Shown in pieces: positions 925 to 10,481 of a DNA stretch of 10,592 nucleotides. The stretch is taken from assembly GCA_016177315.1 (NCBI GenBank), contig JACOVN010000079.1, positions 1-10,592 of the forward strand. The letters run 5' to 3'. Source of the DNA: Candidatus Woesearchaeota archaeon (GTDB lineage Archaea; Nanobdellota; Nanobdellia; Woesearchaeales; UBA12501). Position 1 is the stretch's first letter; the number at the start of each line of letters is the position of its first letter. Position numbers and translations under genes: made by a program. The notes below the pieces were generated by a model that saw only the letters and a program-made list of their open reading frames with translations, had not been told where the DNA came from and did not search any database.

Positions 925-932
925 TTTATATA
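925..932 (+). promoter_or_regulatory. TATA box of the three-gene envelope operon
   Basis: TTTATATA is centred about 26.5 bases before the ATG at 955. This is the archaeal TATA-to-start-site distance, so the transcript would be leaderless or nearly so. The element starts two bases after the stop codon (921-923) of the upstream gene. No ribosome binding site is visible before 955, which agrees with a leaderless message. Confidence 0.65.
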
Positions 933-954: not shown

Positions 955-1725
955 ATGAAGAAAAGAGGTCAAGTCACCTTCTTTGTTATCCTGGGCATTT
1001 TTCTCTTGGTTGTTGTTGGGCTTTTCTATGCTCAACTGGAGAGGGAGATGGCCATAAAAGCACCACCTTCTCTCTCCTTCGATAGAGGAGCCATTCAGCA
1101 ATACGTAGAGTCCTGCATCGCTTCTATAGGAGAAGAAGCTCTCCAGTGGATAGGGGAGCATAGTGGTTATTTCGAATTGCCTACAGAAGCAGTTACCGGT
1201 AGCCCTCTCCAGGCAGCCTATTACTTCTACCTCGATAAGGATCTGATGCCTTCCAAGGAGCGCATCGAACAAGAGATTTCTCGCTACCTGGATGAGGAGC
1301 TTTTTTTCTGCCTCAAGAATTTTGCCGATTTTCCAGGGATGTATATCATCCCAGACGAGGTTGCCACTACTGCCACCATTCTCGACGAGAGCGTGCTCTT
1401 TGAAGTTCGCATGCCACTGCGCATTCAACAGGAAGCCAGCGAAACAAAAATCTCTCTCTTTAGAAATGAAATGAGGAATATTCGATTGCATGCACTCTAT
1501 GCGATGATGAGAGCTTTCATGGATGAGCAAATGAAGAATCCAGCCTCTGTTTGCCTCAGCTGTCTTCTCAAGCTTGGGATACAGTACGATGTTCATATTG
1601 CTATGCAGCGGTTGGATGATGATGTTGTCCTATTCACTCTTACGGATGCACAATCGAAAATAGACGACCAACCCTATCGTTTTGTCTTTGCAAATAAATA
1701 CAAGCTAGCAGAGATGACACCATGA
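955..1725 (+). CDS. pilin-like N-terminally anchored surface protein of unknown function
   Basis: The protein has 256 residues. It begins M-K-K-R-G-Q-V-T-F-F and continues as one hydrophobic helix to about residue 26. A basic K/R-G-Q stretch directly before a hydrophobic helix resembles the class III (type IV pilin-like) signal of archaeal surface proteins, cut after the Gly. The glutamate usual at position +5 of mature pilins is absent, so it may simply be an N-terminal anchor. The remainder is predicted extracellular, with cysteines at 54, 119, 200 and 203. From memory, proteins with a GQVTxF start followed by 'YVESC..S...EAL..IG...GY' recur in Woesearchaeota-like genomes as hypothetical proteins. 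The gene is first in an operon, with its own TATA box and an ATGA overlap with the zincin gene downstream. It may present or assemble with that protein at the surface; this is inference. Confidence 0.88.
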   Translation: MKKRGQVTFFVILGIFLLVVVGLFYAQLEREMAIKAPPSLSFDRGAIQQYVESCIASIGEEALQWIGEHSGYFELPTEAVTGSPLQAAYYFYLDKDLMPSKERIEQEISRYLDEELFFCLKNFADFPGMYIIPDEVATTATILDESVLFEVRMPLRIQQEASETKISLFRNEMRNIRLHALYAMMRAFMDEQMKNPASVCLSCLLKLGIQYDVHIAMQRLDDDVVLFTLTDAQSKIDDQPYRFVFANKYKLAEMTP

Positions 1726-4184
1726 GAAAGAGCAAGGGGTATTGGGTGTTTGGTATTTTGATGGTAATAGCGCTCTACAGTACCCTTGCTCTTGCTGAAG
1801 AGAAAGAATGGGATTACCAAGATATCGAAACCTACCAGAACAATTATGATGATTTCTACCAAAATTCTGATCCAAGCAAGTGGAACTGGGTAAGTGTCGA
1901 CTGGAAGAACGCAGCATTGCAGGATAGATTGACTCGAGACGCTGCTGCGAGCAAAGCATATCTCGGGCATTTAGGTTGCAATAACTGCAAGGTTGAAGTA
2001 TCAAGCCTTCAAGTATATCCGGGAGTGAAGCCATTGCAATACTCAGATAAAGGTATCTCTTACCAGAACAGTTTTGTCTCTCCAGGCAAATATCCTTCTG
2101 GAACAGCATTTATAGCTACAGACGAAGGCATTGAAGTCAGAATCCCCGAAGGAGTAACAAACCTCAAGATTCCTAAGACCGATACCTTCCTTCTTCATAC
2201 AGGAGAGCCTATGATTGAAGCTACTCGGAGAGATACCAGCAGTCCATGGAAACAGAACATTATGCGAATGGGGAGAAAAGTGACTTTAGAAGATGGGACC
2301 ACTGTTAGTGGGAGCCTCTTCTTTGACAAAGAAAAGGTCTACGTGAAAAGCTCAGCCGGTATTGCAGTGATAAATGGTGTGAGCATTGAAAGTAGTGGGG
2401 GATCGGGGGTTACGAGAGTATTTTTTGATGGAAAACCCCATCCTGAATCGAAAATTAGCTATGTTTCTCTTAGTACTACAGAAAAAATGATGACTGCCAA
2501 AGCCATAGACGCACATATCTATTTATCTTTTGGGGAAAATAACCCTTTATTTAAGATAGAGAAACAAGATTCTCCTGTAGATTTTAGGCTTGAGCAAGAA
2601 GTGCAATTAACAGTACAAAACCGCGACCAAGAAGGCCTCATTCCGCTGGTGCGCATACGAAAAACAGGAGACAGAAGCGACTATCATGTACGATCAGGAT
2701 TAGTAGAGTTTGAATACTCCGGACATTTCGACAGAATGGAGTGGTACCCTCTTCCACCAGCTGCTTATCCTACCAGTTCTCCCATGGCTCTCCTTCTTGA
2801 GGATAAAGAGGGAGTTGATTTATTCGGGTCGACTGATGGAAAACCGAATTTTCTTATCACAAACTATAACGAGCTTATAGCAATGGGAACTCTACCCGAT
2901 ACAGAAGGGACCTTTACTAGAAATGTTATTCCCCATGAGAGGGGTGGTTCTTCTCCAGATATCGCTCCTGGCAGGTACAGCGAACGGCTGGACTTCAACT
3001 ATGATGCATTTACTATCAAGGCTTTTCGGCAAGACTTTCCCCGCATCCAGCTTACTGGGGCTATAAACCCAACTGTCGTTAAGCGCCTTTCTGATGCTCT
3101 CCACGATCTGCCCCCGGCTGTGGTGGCAAGCGTAGAAGAAATTATAGTATACACAGACGAAGAATATGAGAAGGCATCCCCAGAAAATAGCGGAGCTTGG
3201 ACATCAAGCGATAGAATCATGAGGCTAAAATTAAGCACTTTAGGGGAATCAACAGTTTATCACGAAGCTGCACATGATTTGACCTTTCTTCTCCAGCAGC
3301 AGAAGAGACGGCAACAAGCTCAACAAAATTATCTCTACGGCAACAATGTTCTATTGGATTCGCAATTAGAAGCGCTCACCAAGAAATACCAGCTAGAGAA
3401 AAAACCTTTGGACAAAATTGACGAGCTTCTGCATGCTTCCAACCTTCCACCTGATGCAAGAGTAGCACTGCAGGATATCGCTCAGCAGTTTCAAAGGAAT
3501 GTAGAAACAATGGAGGCATACGATGCGCAAATAGAACGCTCTTTCGAATACCGATGGATAGATATTGCTGGTAATGTTTATGGTAAAGACCTGGGTCCGA
3601 AAACAGTGGGAGGAAATGTATTTGGTTTAGGGCAGCTTTCAGTCGCATGGAAGGATGGGACTTCCGGGCCCAGAAATGGTTGTGTACGAGCCTATGGCTG
3701 CAACAATTTTTTTGAAGATGTCGCAACCTTTGTCGAATACGCCGATATGCCTTCCTTTTTTACGCCATTTACTAACCAGGATCCAAGAGAAGCTCGAGTT
3801 TTGAGGTTCCAGACACTAAATGAAATTCCCCTCTACTTTCGAACACAGCTTTTGACTAATATCGATGTAAACGATGTACGAACAACAACACAAACCATAA
3901 CCCACTGGTCACCGGATAAGGCCAATTGGATGCCCTTATCTATTCTAACGGTAGATACAGGAAAATTTAAGGGGTACGATCCAGAGAAAACTACAAAAGA
4001 AATTATCACGAAACTCGATAACAATGGAGATGCAAGTGTTCTCTATGAAGCTGCTCGTGAGCATAAAACTACTGTTACCAATGCAGAGTACGATTCCCGC
4101 TATAAGGAAAAGGTAAAATTATTATGTGGGCATAAATTTATAGGGGTGAAGACATGCCAAGCCATCCTCGGGGGAACACCATGA
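1722..4184 (+). CDS. large secreted putative zinc metallopeptidase (HEAAH zincin)
   Basis: The protein has 820 residues. It starts with a clear signal peptide (basic M-R-K-S-K, hydrophobic core, probable cleavage after A-L-A near residue 25). Residues about 100-300 are rich in short beta-strand-like segments with G/T turns and may be a beta-solenoid or beta-sandwich. A zincin motif H-E-A-A-H lies at residues 514-518, preceded by the strand-like S-T-V-Y. Residues about 520-620 are charged and probably helical or coiled. E665 in F-F-E-D-V-A-T-F-V-E, followed by an aromatic-rich segment, resembles the third zinc ligand of gluzincins in anthrax lethal factor-like proteins. The spacing of about 150 residues would need the helical insert to loop out. 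Cysteines at the far C-terminus (CGHK...TCQ) could form a disulfide. Start: ATGA overlap with the preceding gene. I recognise no named family; substrate unknown. Confidence 0.9.
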   Translation: MRKSKGYWVFGILMVIALYSTLALAEEKEWDYQDIETYQNNYDDFYQNSDPSKWNWVSVDWKNAALQDRLTRDAAASKAYLGHLGCNNCKVEVSSLQVYPGVKPLQYSDKGISYQNSFVSPGKYPSGTAFIATDEGIEVRIPEGVTNLKIPKTDTFLLHTGEPMIEATRRDTSSPWKQNIMRMGRKVTLEDGTTVSGSLFFDKEKVYVKSSAGIAVINGVSIESSGGSGVTRVFFDGKPHPESKISYVSLSTTEKMMTAKAIDAHIYLSFGENNPLFKIEKQDSPVDFRLEQEVQLTVQNRDQEGLIPLVRIRKTGDRSDYHVRSGLVEFEYSGHFDRMEWYPLPPAAYPTSSPMALLLEDKEGVDLFGSTDGKPNFLITNYNELIAMGTLPDTEGTFTRNVIPHERGGSSPDIAPGRYSERLDFNYDAFTIKAFRQDFPRIQLTGAINPTVVKRLSDALHDLPPAVVASVEEIIVYTDEEYEKASPENSGAWTSSDRIMRLKLSTLGESTVYHEAAHDLTFLLQQQKRRQQAQQNYLYGNNVLLDSQLEALTKKYQLEKKPLDKIDELLHASNLPPDARVALQDIAQQFQRNVETMEAYDAQIERSFEYRWIDIAGNVYGKDLGPKTVGGNVFGLGQLSVAWKDGTSGPRNGCVRAYGCNNFFEDVATFVEYADMPSFFTPFTNQDPREARVLRFQTLNEIPLYFRTQLLTNIDVNDVRTTTQTITHWSPDKANWMPLSILTVDTGKFKGYDPEKTTKEIITKLDNNGDASVLYEAAREHKTTVTNAEYDSRYKEKVKLLCGHKFIGVKTCQAILGGTP

Positions 4185-4786
4185 GAAAATACCTGCTCTT
4201 CCTCTTCAGCGTTATGCTGCTCTCGATGTCCGTGTACGCTGCCATGGATCATTACTATGAGATTGCCCTCCACTATAACCGTGGAGAGATCTCCCTTCAG
4301 GCTCTTCGCGTCTTGCCAGTAACTAGCGAAGAGAGGAAAGAGAATCTTCCCGGAGGTTTCATCGCAGAGGTAAAAGCTGCTGGCAATGAGGTGTTGAATG
4401 TAACATTCTTTGATGTCCCCCTTGTTGTTCTCTATGATTTCTTCGATAACGGAACAGGGGAGGCTACTGGAGGAGGGATACTCGAGCTCAACGAAACAGA
4501 TGTTCTGCTCAGCATTCCCTATTTTCCCAACGCCAAGGAAATCAACATTTACGACAGTTCCATGACAAAGAAATTAACGATTGATGTCTCTCCTTACGCA
4601 AAGCAGGGCGAAGAAAAAAGAGAAACAGAAATACCAAAGGAACAAGGGAGAGAGGAGAAAGAGCTACCATCCAAAGAGAGAGAGGAAACGAAATCTGAAG
4701 AACAGAGGAAGTATTTCCTCATCGGGCTCATCGTTCTGGTCTTCTTGTTGGCTATTCTCTTCTGGCGGCATTTTGAAAGAGGTTGA
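4181..4786 (+). CDS. type I membrane protein with signal peptide, small ectodomain and charged stalk
   Basis: The protein has 201 residues. An N-terminal signal peptide (M-R-K-Y-L-L-F-L-F-S..., cut near A20/A21) is followed by a probably beta-rich ectodomain to about residue 138. A highly charged Glu/Lys/Arg stalk (about 142-177) and one C-terminal helix (about 178-195, then R-H-F-E-R-G) follow. The ectodomain has three N-x-T sequons, at 73, 90 and 104. I chose the ATG at 4181 over an in-frame ATG at 4154 because it overlaps the zincin stop as ATGA, has GGGGG six bases upstream (4170-4174), and starts exactly at the signal peptide. Function is unknown. The same architecture is used by anchored accessory or receptor subunits, and its translational coupling to the zincin suggests a partner or membrane tether for that protein. 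This is inference from context only. Confidence 0.88.
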   Translation: MRKYLLFLFSVMLLSMSVYAAMDHYYEIALHYNRGEISLQALRVLPVTSEERKENLPGGFIAEVKAAGNEVLNVTFFDVPLVVLYDFFDNGTGEATGGGILELNETDVLLSIPYFPNAKEINIYDSSMTKKLTIDVSPYAKQGEEKRETEIPKEQGREEKELPSKEREETKSEEQRKYFLIGLIVLVFLLAILFWRHFERG

Positions 4787-7876: not shown

Positions 7877-8518
7877 TCAGTTTGAGATTTTGATTTCCGC
7901 CTTTCCCATACCCAGCTGAACAAGCTTAGGGATATCCAGCAAGGATTCCAGCTTTTCAATCATTTCCAATTTTGCTCTTGTCTCCGGATGCTTCGCAATC
8001 AAAAAAGAGCAGCAATCGCTGTACGGCAGAATAGAGGTTTCATACGTTCCAATCTTCTTAGCCAAATCAACAATTTCCTGTTTGTCAAAGCCCAGCAAGG
8101 GGGTTACCATGGGCTTCTTTGCTGCTTTGTAGATAACAGTCAAATTCGTTAGGGTCTGACTTGCCACCTGGCCTACATTATCTCCAGTAACAAAGCCAAA
8201 CGCCTTTTCCTGTTCCAGGATTTTCTCTGCAATCGTGAACATCAGCCTCCTGTAAATAATCATCCGATATTTTGCTGGAATGATACCAATAATCTGCTGC
8301 TGGATTTCAGCAAACGGGACCATAGAGAGTTTGCATGCCTGTCCTTTCTGGTATTTTGTTAGGATTTTCACTAACTGCTCTACTTTGCTCTTTACTGCCT
8401 GTCTTGCATGGGTAAAGTTGTAGAAATGCACGAAAACAATCTCACAGTCTTTCTGCATCATCAGGTAGGCAGCGACAGGAGAATCGATGCCTCCGGAGAT
8501 AAGGGAAAGGAGCTTCAT
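7877..8518 (-). CDS. ThiI-type PP-loop protein lacking the THUMP domain (probable tRNA 4-thiouridine synthase-like)
   Basis: The protein has 213 residues and consists only of the ThiI adenylation domain. The PP-loop S-G-G-I-D-S-P is at 8-14, R-R-L-M-F-T-I-A-E at 90-98, G-D-N-V-G-Q-V-A-S-Q-T-L at 112-123 (the ThiI family box), and P-Y-S-D-C-C-S at 165-171. C169-C170 correspond to the region of the catalytic cysteine of E. coli ThiI. ThiI activates U8 of tRNA with ATP for sulfur transfer. Typical ThiI carries an N-terminal ferredoxin-like plus THUMP tRNA-binding module of about 170 residues, and bacterial forms such as E. coli's add a rhodanese domain; neither is present here. I chose the ATG at 8518 because the PP-loop begins eight residues later and a TATA box sits about 26 bases upstream. 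In-frame codons further upstream run antisense through the lipoprotein start and look non-coding. Confidence 0.88.
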   Translation of the reverse strand: MKLLSLISGGIDSPVAAYLMMQKDCEIVFVHFYNFTHARQAVKSKVEQLVKILTKYQKGQACKLSMVPFAEIQQQIIGIIPAKYRMIIYRRLMFTIAEKILEQEKAFGFVTGDNVGQVASQTLTNLTVIYKAAKKPMVTPLLGFDKQEIVDLAKKIGTYETSILPYSDCCSFLIAKHPETRAKLEMIEKLESLLDIPKLVQLGMGKAEIKISN

Positions 8519-8539
8519 GAAAAGAGAAAATAGGAAAAT

Positions 8540-8549
8540 CTTTATAAAG
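8540..8549. promoter_or_regulatory. palindromic TATA element between divergent genes
   Basis: CTTTATAAAG reads the same on both strands. Its centre (8544.5) is 26.5 bases from the minus-strand ATG at 8518, which fits a leaderless message. On the plus strand it predicts a start near 8571, 15 bases before the ATG at 8586, with GGGGG (8576-8580) in between as a possible ribosome-binding element. One element could therefore serve both genes. Which strand dominates would depend on flanking BRE sequence, and GAAAA lies on its left side. Confidence 0.6.
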
Positions 8550-8585
8550 GATTGGGTTTTTCCCTGGCTAGGTTTGGGGGTCGCT

Positions 8586-10481
8586 ATGAAAGAGGAACGG
8601 GTTGTTTTGCTTATTACTGCCATAGTGCTTCTCTTTGTTATTGCCGGCTGTACCATCCCTAGCATAGCCCCTCCGAGAGCCAGGGAGCCTGTTGAATCAG
8701 AAGATAAAGCCCTGCCAGCAGGATGCAATAACGATGGGAAGGGTGATCCAGGAGAAGCTTGCGATGATGGCAATTTTATTGAAAACGATGCTTGCGATAA
8801 ATGCAGGCCAACAACCTGTGGGGACAGTATTGTCAATGACTATTTCGCCAATAGCGAGAATCTTCCTGAAGCTTGTGATCCTGGCAAAGAAGTGGATGAG
8901 CAAGGCTTTGTGCCAGGGACAAAATTAACGCCCCAACAATACGGCAACCGGCAATGCTCGAACAACACTGGAGTGAATACAGCAGTCTGCATTCCAGATA
9001 AATGCATTTGCGTATACGAAGACCGGCCTGTTTGTGGGAATAATCTCATTGAAGGAGGCTGGACGCCATTCGGCTGGAGAGGAGAGGGTTGTGATGCTCC
9101 TGGCAATCAGGCATTAGGAGACTTACAATGTTTATTCTTAGGGCTAGGGGATACTTGCAATTTGAATGCGTGCAGCTGTTCTGGCTGCAATTATGATGGA
9201 GTTGTGGATGCAGGAGAGCAATGCGATGATGGAAACTTTATAGCCAATGATGAATGTGATGCCTGTGTGAAAACACACTGTGGAGATGGCATTCTGGATG
9301 ATAATCCGAAGAACTGGGATGGAATTAAAGAGGAATGCGGAGAGCCTGGTGCTCCTGCTTGCCCTGCAGATACGGTCTGCAAGGAATGCCAATGCAAGCC
9401 AAAGAAAGCTCCTGGAAATGATTCCATCAACGAAACTATTACTGCCTGTAAGCCGAATGGGCAGTTAGATGCTGGAGAACAATGCGATCCAGGAGTTCCT
9501 GCATTAGGAAAACCTCCCCAAGGATGCCCGGAAGGACAGTACTGTGAGCAAGATTGCAAATGCAAATCCTGGGATAGAGTCATAACACCAAGATGTGGAG
9601 ACGGGTATGTTTCCACAGCATGGGGGCCTGGAGGAGGAAATGAAGAATGTGATATTGGAGGAGGGTACAGCAATATCAAGTATCCGCCTGCGCCAGATAC
9701 CTGCCCACCAGGCATGAAATGTGCTGCCCCAGAAACGCCAAATCAGTGCAAATGTTTGCCGATAGAAACAGTAACAGGCATTTGCCCAGAGCCATATGAA
9801 ACCTTGGATGTCTGCCAATCCTACTGTCCTGAGGAAGGAGGAGAGTGCGATTACCGCCATCAAACAGATACTGGAGAAAGGTGCTATTACTGCTATGTGC
9901 CTTCCTGTCCTTCCGGAACAACAGAAGACTTGAAAAATTGTGAAAAACAGTGTCCAGGAAAGTGTCAGGAATATGAGCAGATTGGAGAGAAAATCTGTTA
10001 CCAATGCTTGCAGTACCAATGCCCGCAAGGAACAGTGAGTGACCAAGCAGCCTGCCAGAAGCAATGTACTACTGGAGACTGTGTTGTTGCGGCAGAGAAG
10101 GAAGGCTTCCAGTGCTGGGCATGCAAAACCAACTGTGAAAAGTACTGCACGAGCAAAGGATATACAACAAGACAGCCAGATTACACTTCTTACATTGAAT
10201 CCCAGCTGAATCAGAAATCCTGTGTTAAATCAGCCCATATACAGTTCCCGAATTACCTGAAGGCAGGAGACTGTACCTGTTATTCTCAGGAAATGCCAAC
10301 GATTACCTTTGATGAGACAAGGCCTATTTGTACTGGCACGGTTTGTGGAGATGTACCCTGTGGAGAGTCAAGGGAATGCAATATTGATGAAAACACTGTT
10401 GCAGAGGTTTCCTGCAACTGGAACGGATGGAAGAGAGTTGGAGAGTATCAGTATGTGCCACAGGTGGGGGCGGTGGGATGA
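8586..10481 (+). CDS. large cysteine-rich lipoprotein with 'CDDGN' disulfide repeats
   Basis: The protein has 631 residues and 67 cysteines by my count. The N-terminus has a basic start, a hydrophobic helix (about 6-19) and a lipobox V-I-A-G-C with C22 as the lipidation site. Residues about 47-360 carry a series of loose repeats (starting near 47, 78, 150, 201, 232, 288 and 337) of the form C-x-D/N-G...G-E-x-C-D-x-G. Two copies (59-68 and 213-222) share C-D-D-G-N-F-I-x-N-D. This matches the disulfide-rich repeat first described in Myxococcus (DUF4215-like). Residues about 400-516 hold three different tandem repeats of 38-41 residues with C-x2-C ends. The C-terminal 110 residues hold only about nine cysteines. 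Such proteins are expected outside the cell with many disulfides; adhesion or binding is a guess. I chose the ATG at 8586 over in-frame ATGs at 8487 and 8517 because it begins the signal sequence. Confidence 0.92.
   Translation: MKEERVVLLITAIVLLFVIAGCTIPSIAPPRAREPVESEDKALPAGCNNDGKGDPGEACDDGNFIENDACDKCRPTTCGDSIVNDYFANSENLPEACDPGKEVDEQGFVPGTKLTPQQYGNRQCSNNTGVNTAVCIPDKCICVYEDRPVCGNNLIEGGWTPFGWRGEGCDAPGNQALGDLQCLFLGLGDTCNLNACSCSGCNYDGVVDAGEQCDDGNFIANDECDACVKTHCGDGILDDNPKNWDGIKEECGEPGAPACPADTVCKECQCKPKKAPGNDSINETITACKPNGQLDAGEQCDPGVPALGKPPQGCPEGQYCEQDCKCKSWDRVITPRCGDGYVSTAWGPGGGNEECDIGGGYSNIKYPPAPDTCPPGMKCAAPETPNQCKCLPIETVTGICPEPYETLDVCQSYCPEEGGECDYRHQTDTGERCYYCYVPSCPSGTTEDLKNCEKQCPGKCQEYEQIGEKICYQCLQYQCPQGTVSDQAACQKQCTTGDCVVAAEKEGFQCWACKTNCEKYCTSKGYTTRQPDYTSYIESQLNQKSCVKSAHIQFPNYLKAGDCTCYSQEMPTITFDETRPICTGTVCGDVPCGESRECNIDENTVAEVSCNWNGWKRVGEYQYVPQVGAVG

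What the first reader, a model, noticed from the sequence alone, without database searches (positions are those of the whole stretch)
955..4786. Translationally coupled three-gene surface cassette built around an unfamiliar HEAAH zincin
A pilin-like anchored protein, an 820-residue secreted zincin and a signal-peptide/C-terminal-anchor protein share one promoter and two ATGA overlaps. All three are predicted outside the membrane. The zincin has H-E-A-A-H at residues 514-518 and a likely third ligand E665 in a gluzincin-like 'FEDVATFVE' segment, but the rest matches no family I can name. An anchored protease with a coupled membrane partner could process surface proteins, host material or the pilin-like protein itself. 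Seen: overlaps, motif, signal peptides. Inferred: a common complex.
Basis: partly seen in the sequence, partly recalled or inferred. Interest (0 to 1): 0.7.

Follow-up and report, generated by a model that had tools for sequence, protein, structure and literature searches.

The report
Conserved archaeal surface-protease gene cassette
In a group of tiny, uncultured archaea, three neighbouring genes make a pilin-like membrane protein, a secreted zinc-protease-like enzyme and a membrane-anchored partner, and this set is kept together in distant relatives, which suggests a shared surface machine whose enzyme part can be exchanged.

Summary
In detail: three coupled genes (955-1725, 1722-4184, 4181-4786), two ATGA overlaps, HEAAH at 514-518, E665. 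Named relatives are Woesearchaeota. The 820-residue protein is a Sec signal, a β-rich N-module (about 29-395) and a zincin domain (about 430-820). Through stand-alone archaeal relatives the domain joins Peptidase_Mx1 / MtfA-like gluzincins, although the window protein alone matches nothing. The cassette recurs: gene 1 lies in the same cluster at 34 of 36 N-module loci in the order and directly upstream at 11 of 12 outside it; gene 3 stands at 13 of 15 loci with this zincin type and at 1 of 25 others with downstream sequence (kinship not removed). Other N-modules carry other, partly hydrolase-like C-termini. Best reading: a pilin-tethered surface hydrolase with exchangeable catalytic domain and a cognate membrane partner. 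Substrate, gene-3 role and complex formation are inferred. No description found in the papers searched.

The parts
925..932 (+). TATA-like box TTTATATA, ending 22 nt before the start of gene 1; likely the single promoter of the cassette
   Evidence: sequence by eye; not tested
955..1725 (+). gene 1: 256-aa protein with class-III (prepilin-type) N-terminus MKKRG|QVTFFVILGIF, one N-terminal membrane helix, outside domain with two Cys kept in 38 of 38 aligned gene-1 sequences
   Evidence: same-cluster partner of N-module genes
1722..1725 (+). ATGA overlap, gene 1 stop / gene 2 start
1722..4184 (+). gene 2: 820-aa Sec-type N-module + zincin protein
1722..1799 (+). signal peptide (residues 1 to about 26)
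   Evidence: hydropathy, one segment at 7-25
1806..2906 (+). N-module, beta-rich constant module (residues about 29-395)
   Evidence: profile boundaries; 32 of 352 genomes of the order; 24 strands between 90 and 388, pLDDT mostly 80-95 with weak stretches at 161-180, 331-350 and 361-390
3009..4181 (+). zincin catalytic domain (residues about 430-820), Mx1/MtfA-like gluzincin; residues 681-790 poorly modelled
3261..3275 (+). HEAAH, residues 514-518
3693..3719 (+). third-ligand segment, residues 658-666 (Y658, E665, D666)
   Evidence: E665 37 of 37, Y658 34 of 37, D666 29 of 37
4181..4184 (+). ATGA overlap, gene 2 stop / gene 3 start
4181..4786 (+). gene 3: 201-aa signal-peptide protein with C-terminal membrane anchor; goes with this zincin type

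Best explanation
A conserved cell-surface protease cassette of Woesearchaeota and related orders. Gene 2 is exported by Sec; its N-module docks on the cognate gene-1 protein, a prepilin-type membrane protein that stays anchored in the membrane, alone or built into a pilus-like assembly; this displays the C-terminal Mx1/MtfA-like gluzincin (Zn by H514, H518, E665; E515 general base; Y658 probably stabilising) outside the cell, where it cuts surface or extracellular proteins of other cells or of the host. Gene 3, anchored by its C-terminus, acts on the catalytic half (most likely restrains it or holds it near the own surface). Shown: gene order, couplings, topology from sequence, conservation of the four site residues, recurrence of the cassette, association of gene 1 with the N-module and of gene 3 with the zincin. 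Inferred: docking, zinc, proteolysis, target, restraint by gene 3.
For: Four invariant columns H514 E515 H518 E665 in 37 domains, to which the window domain shows 17-35% identity. The profile of these domains hits PDB 4l7a (1.5e-8) and 9urd, a substrate import-associated zinc metallohydrolase lipoprotein (5.3e-7), with HExxH and the ED segment aligned; MtfA 9srw/3dl1 only weakly (0.05, 0.13), below chance-like entries; 11 of 37 members hit Peptidase_Mx1 at E <= 0.01. Gene 1 in the same-strand cluster at 34 of 36 fetched N-module loci of the order with upstream sequence (read), ending -120 to +60 nt from the start for 29 of 42 N genes, and directly upstream at 11 of 12 loci fetched outside the order. 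Gene-1 copies next to N-modules cluster in a tree: one side 29 paired + 1 other, other side 4 paired + 23 other; the split itself is weak (57/90), but none of 500 shuffles cluster as well. Gene 3 at 13 of 15 zincin-type N loci and 1 of 25 other N loci that have downstream sequence. Full cassette in L132, L133, L135, L138 outside the order. N-linked zincins group together (92/88), with one exception. Prepilin peptidase in 7 of 7 and a T2SSE-type ATPase in 6 of 7 genomes checked.
Against: The window protein and the 8-row profiles of its nearest kin match no family or solved structure with weight on their own (36, MtfA at 0.16; 98, none). Foldseek with the full model finds nothing below E 0.03. 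The site geometry was not measured. Gene 1 is a family of 5-12 matches per genome in the six genomes checked, a few genes counted twice, also next to other large secreted proteins, so it is not specific to this enzyme; its model is poor. Gene-3-like domains occur away from N-modules too (65 of 352 genomes have a match). One zincin-type locus in the order (L015) has neither gene 1 nor gene 3, and L137 has no gene 3. L084 matched the zincin profile once but has no aligned E665 and is not among the 37.
Confidence: 0.6

Rival explanations
1. Nutrient-gathering protease: the cassette digests proteins in the surroundings for amino acids, and gene 3 is a subunit or substrate-holding partner, as Mx1-type lipoproteins sit beside SusC/SusD import genes in Bacteroidetes.
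For: Closest solved relatives are Mx1-type proteins, one named 'substrate import-associated' (the SusC/SusD link is recalled). Organisms of this kind are expected to be auxotrophs (recalled).
Against: No transporter family was found among the ten window proteins scanned with Pfam; some sister N-modules carry lysozyme-like ends (motif reading) that fit attack on other cells at least as well.
Confidence: 0.3
2. Maturation enzyme: the zincin processes the gene-1 protein or other own surface proteins (pilin processing).
For: Tight coupling of genes 1 and 2. Surface peptidases of another (transglutaminase) family were linked to archaeal type IV pili, with a suggested role in processing or degrading pilins (PMC4858521, passages seen).
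Against: Gene 1 is equally coupled to N-modules without this zincin and to quite different secreted proteins, so it is not a dedicated substrate of the zincin.
Confidence: 0.12
3. Toxin and immunity: the N-module plus gene 1 form a delivery platform, the C-terminal domain is a swappable effector, gene 3 is the immunity protein of the zincin.
For: Constant N-module with several different C-termini; gene 3 follows the zincin type in 2.8 of 3 independent pairs on supported branches and at 13 of 15 loci against 1 of 25; array of four zincins and three gene-3 copies in L017.
Against: Only three independent pairs, too few for significance; gene-3-like domains are also found away from zincins; one gene 3 stands beside a non-zincin (L088); no killing data.
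Confidence: 0.2
4. A structural surface protein with a dead enzyme remnant.
For: Very divergent overall (17-35% identity).
Against: Exactly the presumed catalytic residues are the invariant ones.
Confidence: 0.05

Closest known systems
Peptidase_Mx1 (PF15890) / substrate import-associated zinc metallohydrolase lipoprotein (TIGR04549), PDB 4l7a, 9urd
   Same: HExxH, then a G-[FY]-V...Y-x6-E-D segment; both aligned by profile; 11 of 37 family members hit the Pfam model at E <= 0.01, 2 of 33 N-module-set proteins hit TIGR04549 (best 0.0012)
   Different: Window protein itself does not hit; 151 residues from H514 to E665 against a median of 76 in the 37; fused to an archaeal N-module; archaeal cassette instead of a SusC/D locus (recalled)
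MtfA (Peptidase M90) and the lethal-factor-like gluzincins
   Same: HExxH plus Tyr and Glu seven residues apart (Y658/E665); that spacing in MtfA and in the lethal factor family is recalled; weak profile hits 9srw, 3dl1; one of 37 domains hits Peptidase_M90 (1.4e-4)
   Different: MtfA is cytoplasmic and stands alone (recalled); no significant fold match
Archaeal type IV pilins / class III signal peptide proteins
   Same: [KR]G|Q start followed by a hydrophobic helix; prepilin peptidase in 7 of 7 genomes
   Different: Large outside part; in operon with one large secreted protein; fold not shown
Bacterial polymorphic toxin systems (PMC3482391, listing and abstract start only)
   Same: constant N-terminal part, variable C-terminal ends, small adjacent partner
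   Different: archaeal, no known delivery domain recognised, partner is membrane anchored, immunity not shown

Membership tests
Gluzincin metallopeptidase (clan MA) | HExxH motif conserved in homologues | tested here: met
   36 of 37 contiguous; H, E, H columns 37 of 37 (L085 has one inserted residue)
Gluzincin metallopeptidase (clan MA) | third ligand Glu downstream, conserved | tested here: met
   E665 column 37 of 37; two candidates not in the 37: L056 (contig-end fragment) and L084 (no aligned Glu)
Gluzincin metallopeptidase (clan MA) | three ligands meet at one metal site | tested here: inconclusive
   both helices (509-555, 663-675) modelled with block pLDDT 92 at 511-520 and at 661-670, but coordinates not available; Foldseek: MtfA-like 3khi at rank 18, E 0.30
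Peptidase_Mx1 (PF15890) | window protein scores over the Pfam cut-off | tested here: not met
   no match; so it is a relative, not a member
Peptidase_Mx1 (PF15890) | linked to Mx1 through intermediates | tested here: met
   8-row full-length profile to G247:C22 (L066) 5e-13; L066 to PF15890 2.3e-5, 24.3 of 25.6 bits; 37-row profile to 4l7a 1.5e-8; the 8-row catalytic profile alone finds nothing
Type IV pilin (gene 1) | class III signal peptide | tested here: met
   MKKRG|QVTFF in the window; a loose pattern in 30 of 40 gene-1 ORFs, the other ten truncated or with variant residues; Q6 in 36 of 38; cleavage not tested
Type IV pilin (gene 1) | pilin fold | tested here: inconclusive
   long N-terminal helix and C-terminal strands, but mean pLDDT 53 from 5 sequences; no fold search made with it
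Polymorphic toxin system | constant N-terminal module with exchanged C-terminal ends | tested here: met
   N-module with zincin C, zincin B, lysozyme-like and unassigned ends; zincin label needs 6 changes on the 39-row N tree, at least 4 on supported branches; some rows are cut or short, which inflates the changes
Polymorphic toxin system | specific immunity protein | not testable with these tools
   gene 3 is linked to the zincin but inhibition needs an experiment

The most novel reading that the evidence does not exclude
A class-wide archaeal weapon or host-interaction system: a prepilin-type anchor plus constant N-module forms a surface display or delivery platform on which different hydrolases (two kinds of zincin, a lysozyme-like domain, perhaps a caspase-like peptidase) are exchanged, with gene 3 as a membrane-anchored immunity protein for the zincin version.
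Probability: 0.25. Interest if true: 0.85.

Novelty: new variant of a known kind. Interest (0 to 1): 0.62.

Why it matters
How ultra-small DPANN archaea act on their hosts or neighbours is an open question and few surface enzymes are known. A small, conserved cassette with an identifiable enzyme, a coupled anchor and a cognate partner, with exchangeable enzyme ends, gives concrete proteins to express and test, and a marker to look for in genomes of cultured pairs.

Tried and rejected
IMG/VR scans for the zincin, gene 1 and gene 3 found no relative. Foldseek of the full gene-2 model: 478 matches up to E 10, none at or below 0.001, 50 shown; many of those shown are named as beta-propeller proteins but with poor superposition, so I do not call the N-module a propeller. 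Gene 3: only scattered single-member Pfam hits, best 0.012, and no PDB relative. Lysozyme-like end: no PDB hit for L053, Pfam nothing usable; the label rests on recalled motifs. L088 end: two PDB hits at E 0.69 and 0.92, without meaning; the caspase-like label rests on recalled motifs. Sigma-70 promoter scan is not apt for archaea and found 4 sites against 6.8 in shuffles. Gene 1 as exclusive partner was rejected: of 18 gene-1 copies in the stretches, three are cut downstream, and 11 of the other 15 are directly followed by another large signal-peptide protein (my count; 143 for the totals). Gene-3 search: the 11 best hits all lie at zincin-type loci, but nine of them are rows of the search profile, so this proves little; the next hits (G111 1.9e-36, G052 4.9e-31) lie in genomes without an N-module match. 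The first count of gene 3 at other N loci, 1 of 35, included ten loci cut downstream; without them it is 1 of 25. Papers: Woesearchaeota+metalloprotease+secreted 0 papers; Peptidase_Mx1/PF15890/TIGR04549 0 papers; other searches. These cover only the open library.
Full report
What is there. The window is the whole contig C153 of an incomplete genome (908,737 bases, 167 contigs, 79% complete). Gene 1 (955-1725), gene 2 (1722-4184) and gene 3 (4181-4786) overlap by ATGA twice. A TATA-like box lies just before gene 1 and another before the next gene, a family 2 glycosyltransferase, so the three genes look like one unit; this was judged by eye. Of the seven relatives' loci with names, six are Candidatus Woesearchaeota MAGs and one an 'uncultured archaeon'; that the window is of the same kind follows from the shared order.

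Topology. A simple hydropathy script gives gene 1 one N-terminal segment, gene 2 only a signal peptide, gene 3 a signal peptide and a C-terminal anchor. In that call the N-module proteins have an N-terminal segment except two pieces without a proper start (L014, L073); three show a second weak segment. Gene 1 starts KRG|QVTFF, the prepilin-type pattern (recalled), and has two Cys columns kept in 38 of 38 sequences.

Gene 2 is modular. The single-protein search found relatives in 5 of 193 genomes of the order, own genome included; an 8-row profile found 39 of 352. Dissection by local profiles gives an N-module (about residues 29-395) and a catalytic domain (about 430-820). The N-module was found in 32 of 352 genomes of the order at E <= 1e-4, some near that limit. 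Among 371 genomes drawn from the phylum 34 had it, 20 of the order and 14 of other orders of the class; no hit was labelled as outside the class, but how many of the 371 lie outside it was not shown. It is beta-rich and mostly confidently modelled, with no convincing solved relative.

The metal site. In the alignment of 37 catalytic domains, with and without N-module, the only invariant columns are H514, E515, H518 and E665; Y658 is kept in 34, A668 in 36, G653 in 34. Contiguous HExxH is present in 36 (L085 carries an insert). Left out: L056, a contig-end fragment, dropped by me; L084, found with HExxH but no aligned Glu, not in the list. Of five more domains from other orders, four show all four residues and one (L138) has HELTH but did not align. 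The model puts HEAAH in helix 509-555 and E665 in helix 663-675, both confident, but distances could not be read.

Family. Pfam and NCBIfam give nothing of weight for the window protein. The profile of the 37 domains hits PDB 4l7a (1.5e-8) and 9urd (5.3e-7), the latter named a substrate import-associated zinc metallohydrolase lipoprotein; the next entries (virion RNA polymerases, 0.013-0.02) look like chance and MtfA follows at 0.05. The alignment to 4l7a covers HExxH and the segment with Y and ED. Eleven of 37 domains hit Peptidase_Mx1 at E <= 0.01. L066 bridges: the 8-row profile finds it at 5e-13 and it reaches PF15890 at 2.3e-5, just under the cut-off. The 8 catalytic domains nearest the window find nothing in the PDB alone. 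I therefore call it a distant Mx1/MtfA-like gluzincin, not a member of PF15890.

Neighbours. The fetched stretches of the order hold 44 N-module genes at 38 loci; five weak matches (G273, G253, G285, G143, G268) were not fetched, and L106 showed no N-module with the local profile. Forty-two genes have at least 300 nt upstream; 29 of these have gene 1 ending within -120 to +60 nt of their start. By locus, two are cut at the 5' side; of 36, 34 have gene 1 in the same-strand cluster by my reading (L060 has it downstream, L016 and L101 have gene 3 between); L015 and L104 lack it. Outside the order I fetched 12 loci from 10 of the 14 genomes; 11 have gene 1 directly upstream, L139 does not. Gene 3 stands at 9 of 10 zincin-type loci and 1 of 28 others in the order and, with the 12 outside loci, at 13 of 15 and 1 of 35. 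Ten of the 35 are cut downstream; without them it is 1 of 25 (Fisher 1e-7, kinship not removed). L052, zincin type with gene 3, is not counted because its N-module is only partly present. On the N tree only three independent pairs on supported branches exist, gene 3 going with the zincin in 2.8 of 3 on average, which cannot reach significance. Gene-3-like matches occur in 65 of 352 genomes, mostly weak and away from N-modules. The complete order gene 1 - gene 2 - gene 3 is seen in other orders in L132, L133, L135 and L138. In L017 one gene 1 is followed by four zincin proteins and three gene-3 copies.

Gene 1 is general. Six genomes hold 5-12 matches each, a few genes counted twice. In 13 further stretches there are 18 gene-1 copies; of 15 not cut downstream, 11 are directly followed by another large signal-peptide protein (my count). 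In the tree, N-paired copies fall together, apart from four (L018, L105, L107, L108; three of these have weak N-modules), with one unpaired copy among them; the dividing branch is weak. This suggests a common plan, anchor plus large secreted cargo, with partly specific pairs.

Other C-termini. Sister N-module proteins end in a second zincin type, in a lysozyme-like domain (L053, and L013 in the window's own genome), or in unassigned ends, one with a GHSG...AGCASA pattern reminiscent of caspase-like peptidases (L088). The lysozyme- and caspase-like labels are motif readings from memory; searches did not confirm them. N-linked window-type zincins form one group (92/88, bootstrap not settled) apart from the stand-alone ones, with L072 inside it as the one exception.

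Reading. Most likely a cell-surface protease: Sec-exported gene 2, tethered through its N-module to the prepilin-type gene-1 protein, with gene 3 acting on the catalytic half. That Woesearchaeota may attack other cells has been argued from lytic transglycosylase and hemolysin genes (PMC9723730, passages), and archaeal peptidoglycan hydrolases that kill bacteria have been reported (PMC12352652, abstract start and passages). Against pilin processing: gene 1 is coupled just as tightly to proteins without this zincin. The weak points are the missing geometry, the poor gene-1 model (pLDDT 53), and the absence of any biochemical data.

Noticed in passing
L013:28-2112 (own genome, contig C51): Paralogue with the same N-module but a lysozyme/transglycosylase-like C-terminus, shared with L053 (motif reading).
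   Followed up: partly
L088:7457-9568: N-module protein whose C-terminus has GHSG and AGCASA patterns, perhaps a caspase-fold peptidase, followed by a gene-3 relative.
   Followed up: partly
L110-L122: Gene-1-type proteins often directly before large signal-peptide proteins (640 to over 1400 aa) without N-module: a general anchor-plus-cargo gene pair.
   Followed up: partly
window 1717-1729 and 4176-4188: The two overlap junctions share the 13-mer ACACCATGAGAAA; both upstream proteins end in Thr-Pro.
   Followed up: no
L014:3-7721: Zincin with partial N-module at the end of an at least 2573-residue protein that also shows an HD-type motif (by eye).
   Followed up: no
L105:8938-19998; row G225:C7: Weak N-module match at the start of a giant open frame of about 10,000 residues, with gene 1 directly before it.
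   Followed up: no
window 8487-10481: 664-residue Cys-rich protein with repeated CDDGN..D.CD..C units (like DUF4215/Myxococcus Cys-rich repeats, recalled; no such Pfam match).
   Followed up: no
L016:5364-5948 and L116:4293-4823: A winged-helix or HTH-like gene (by eye) lies between gene 1 and the large secreted gene.
   Followed up: no
L110:8445-13999: A run of small proteins with class-III-like starts next to a gene-1/cargo pair; may be a pilus-like cluster.
   Followed up: no
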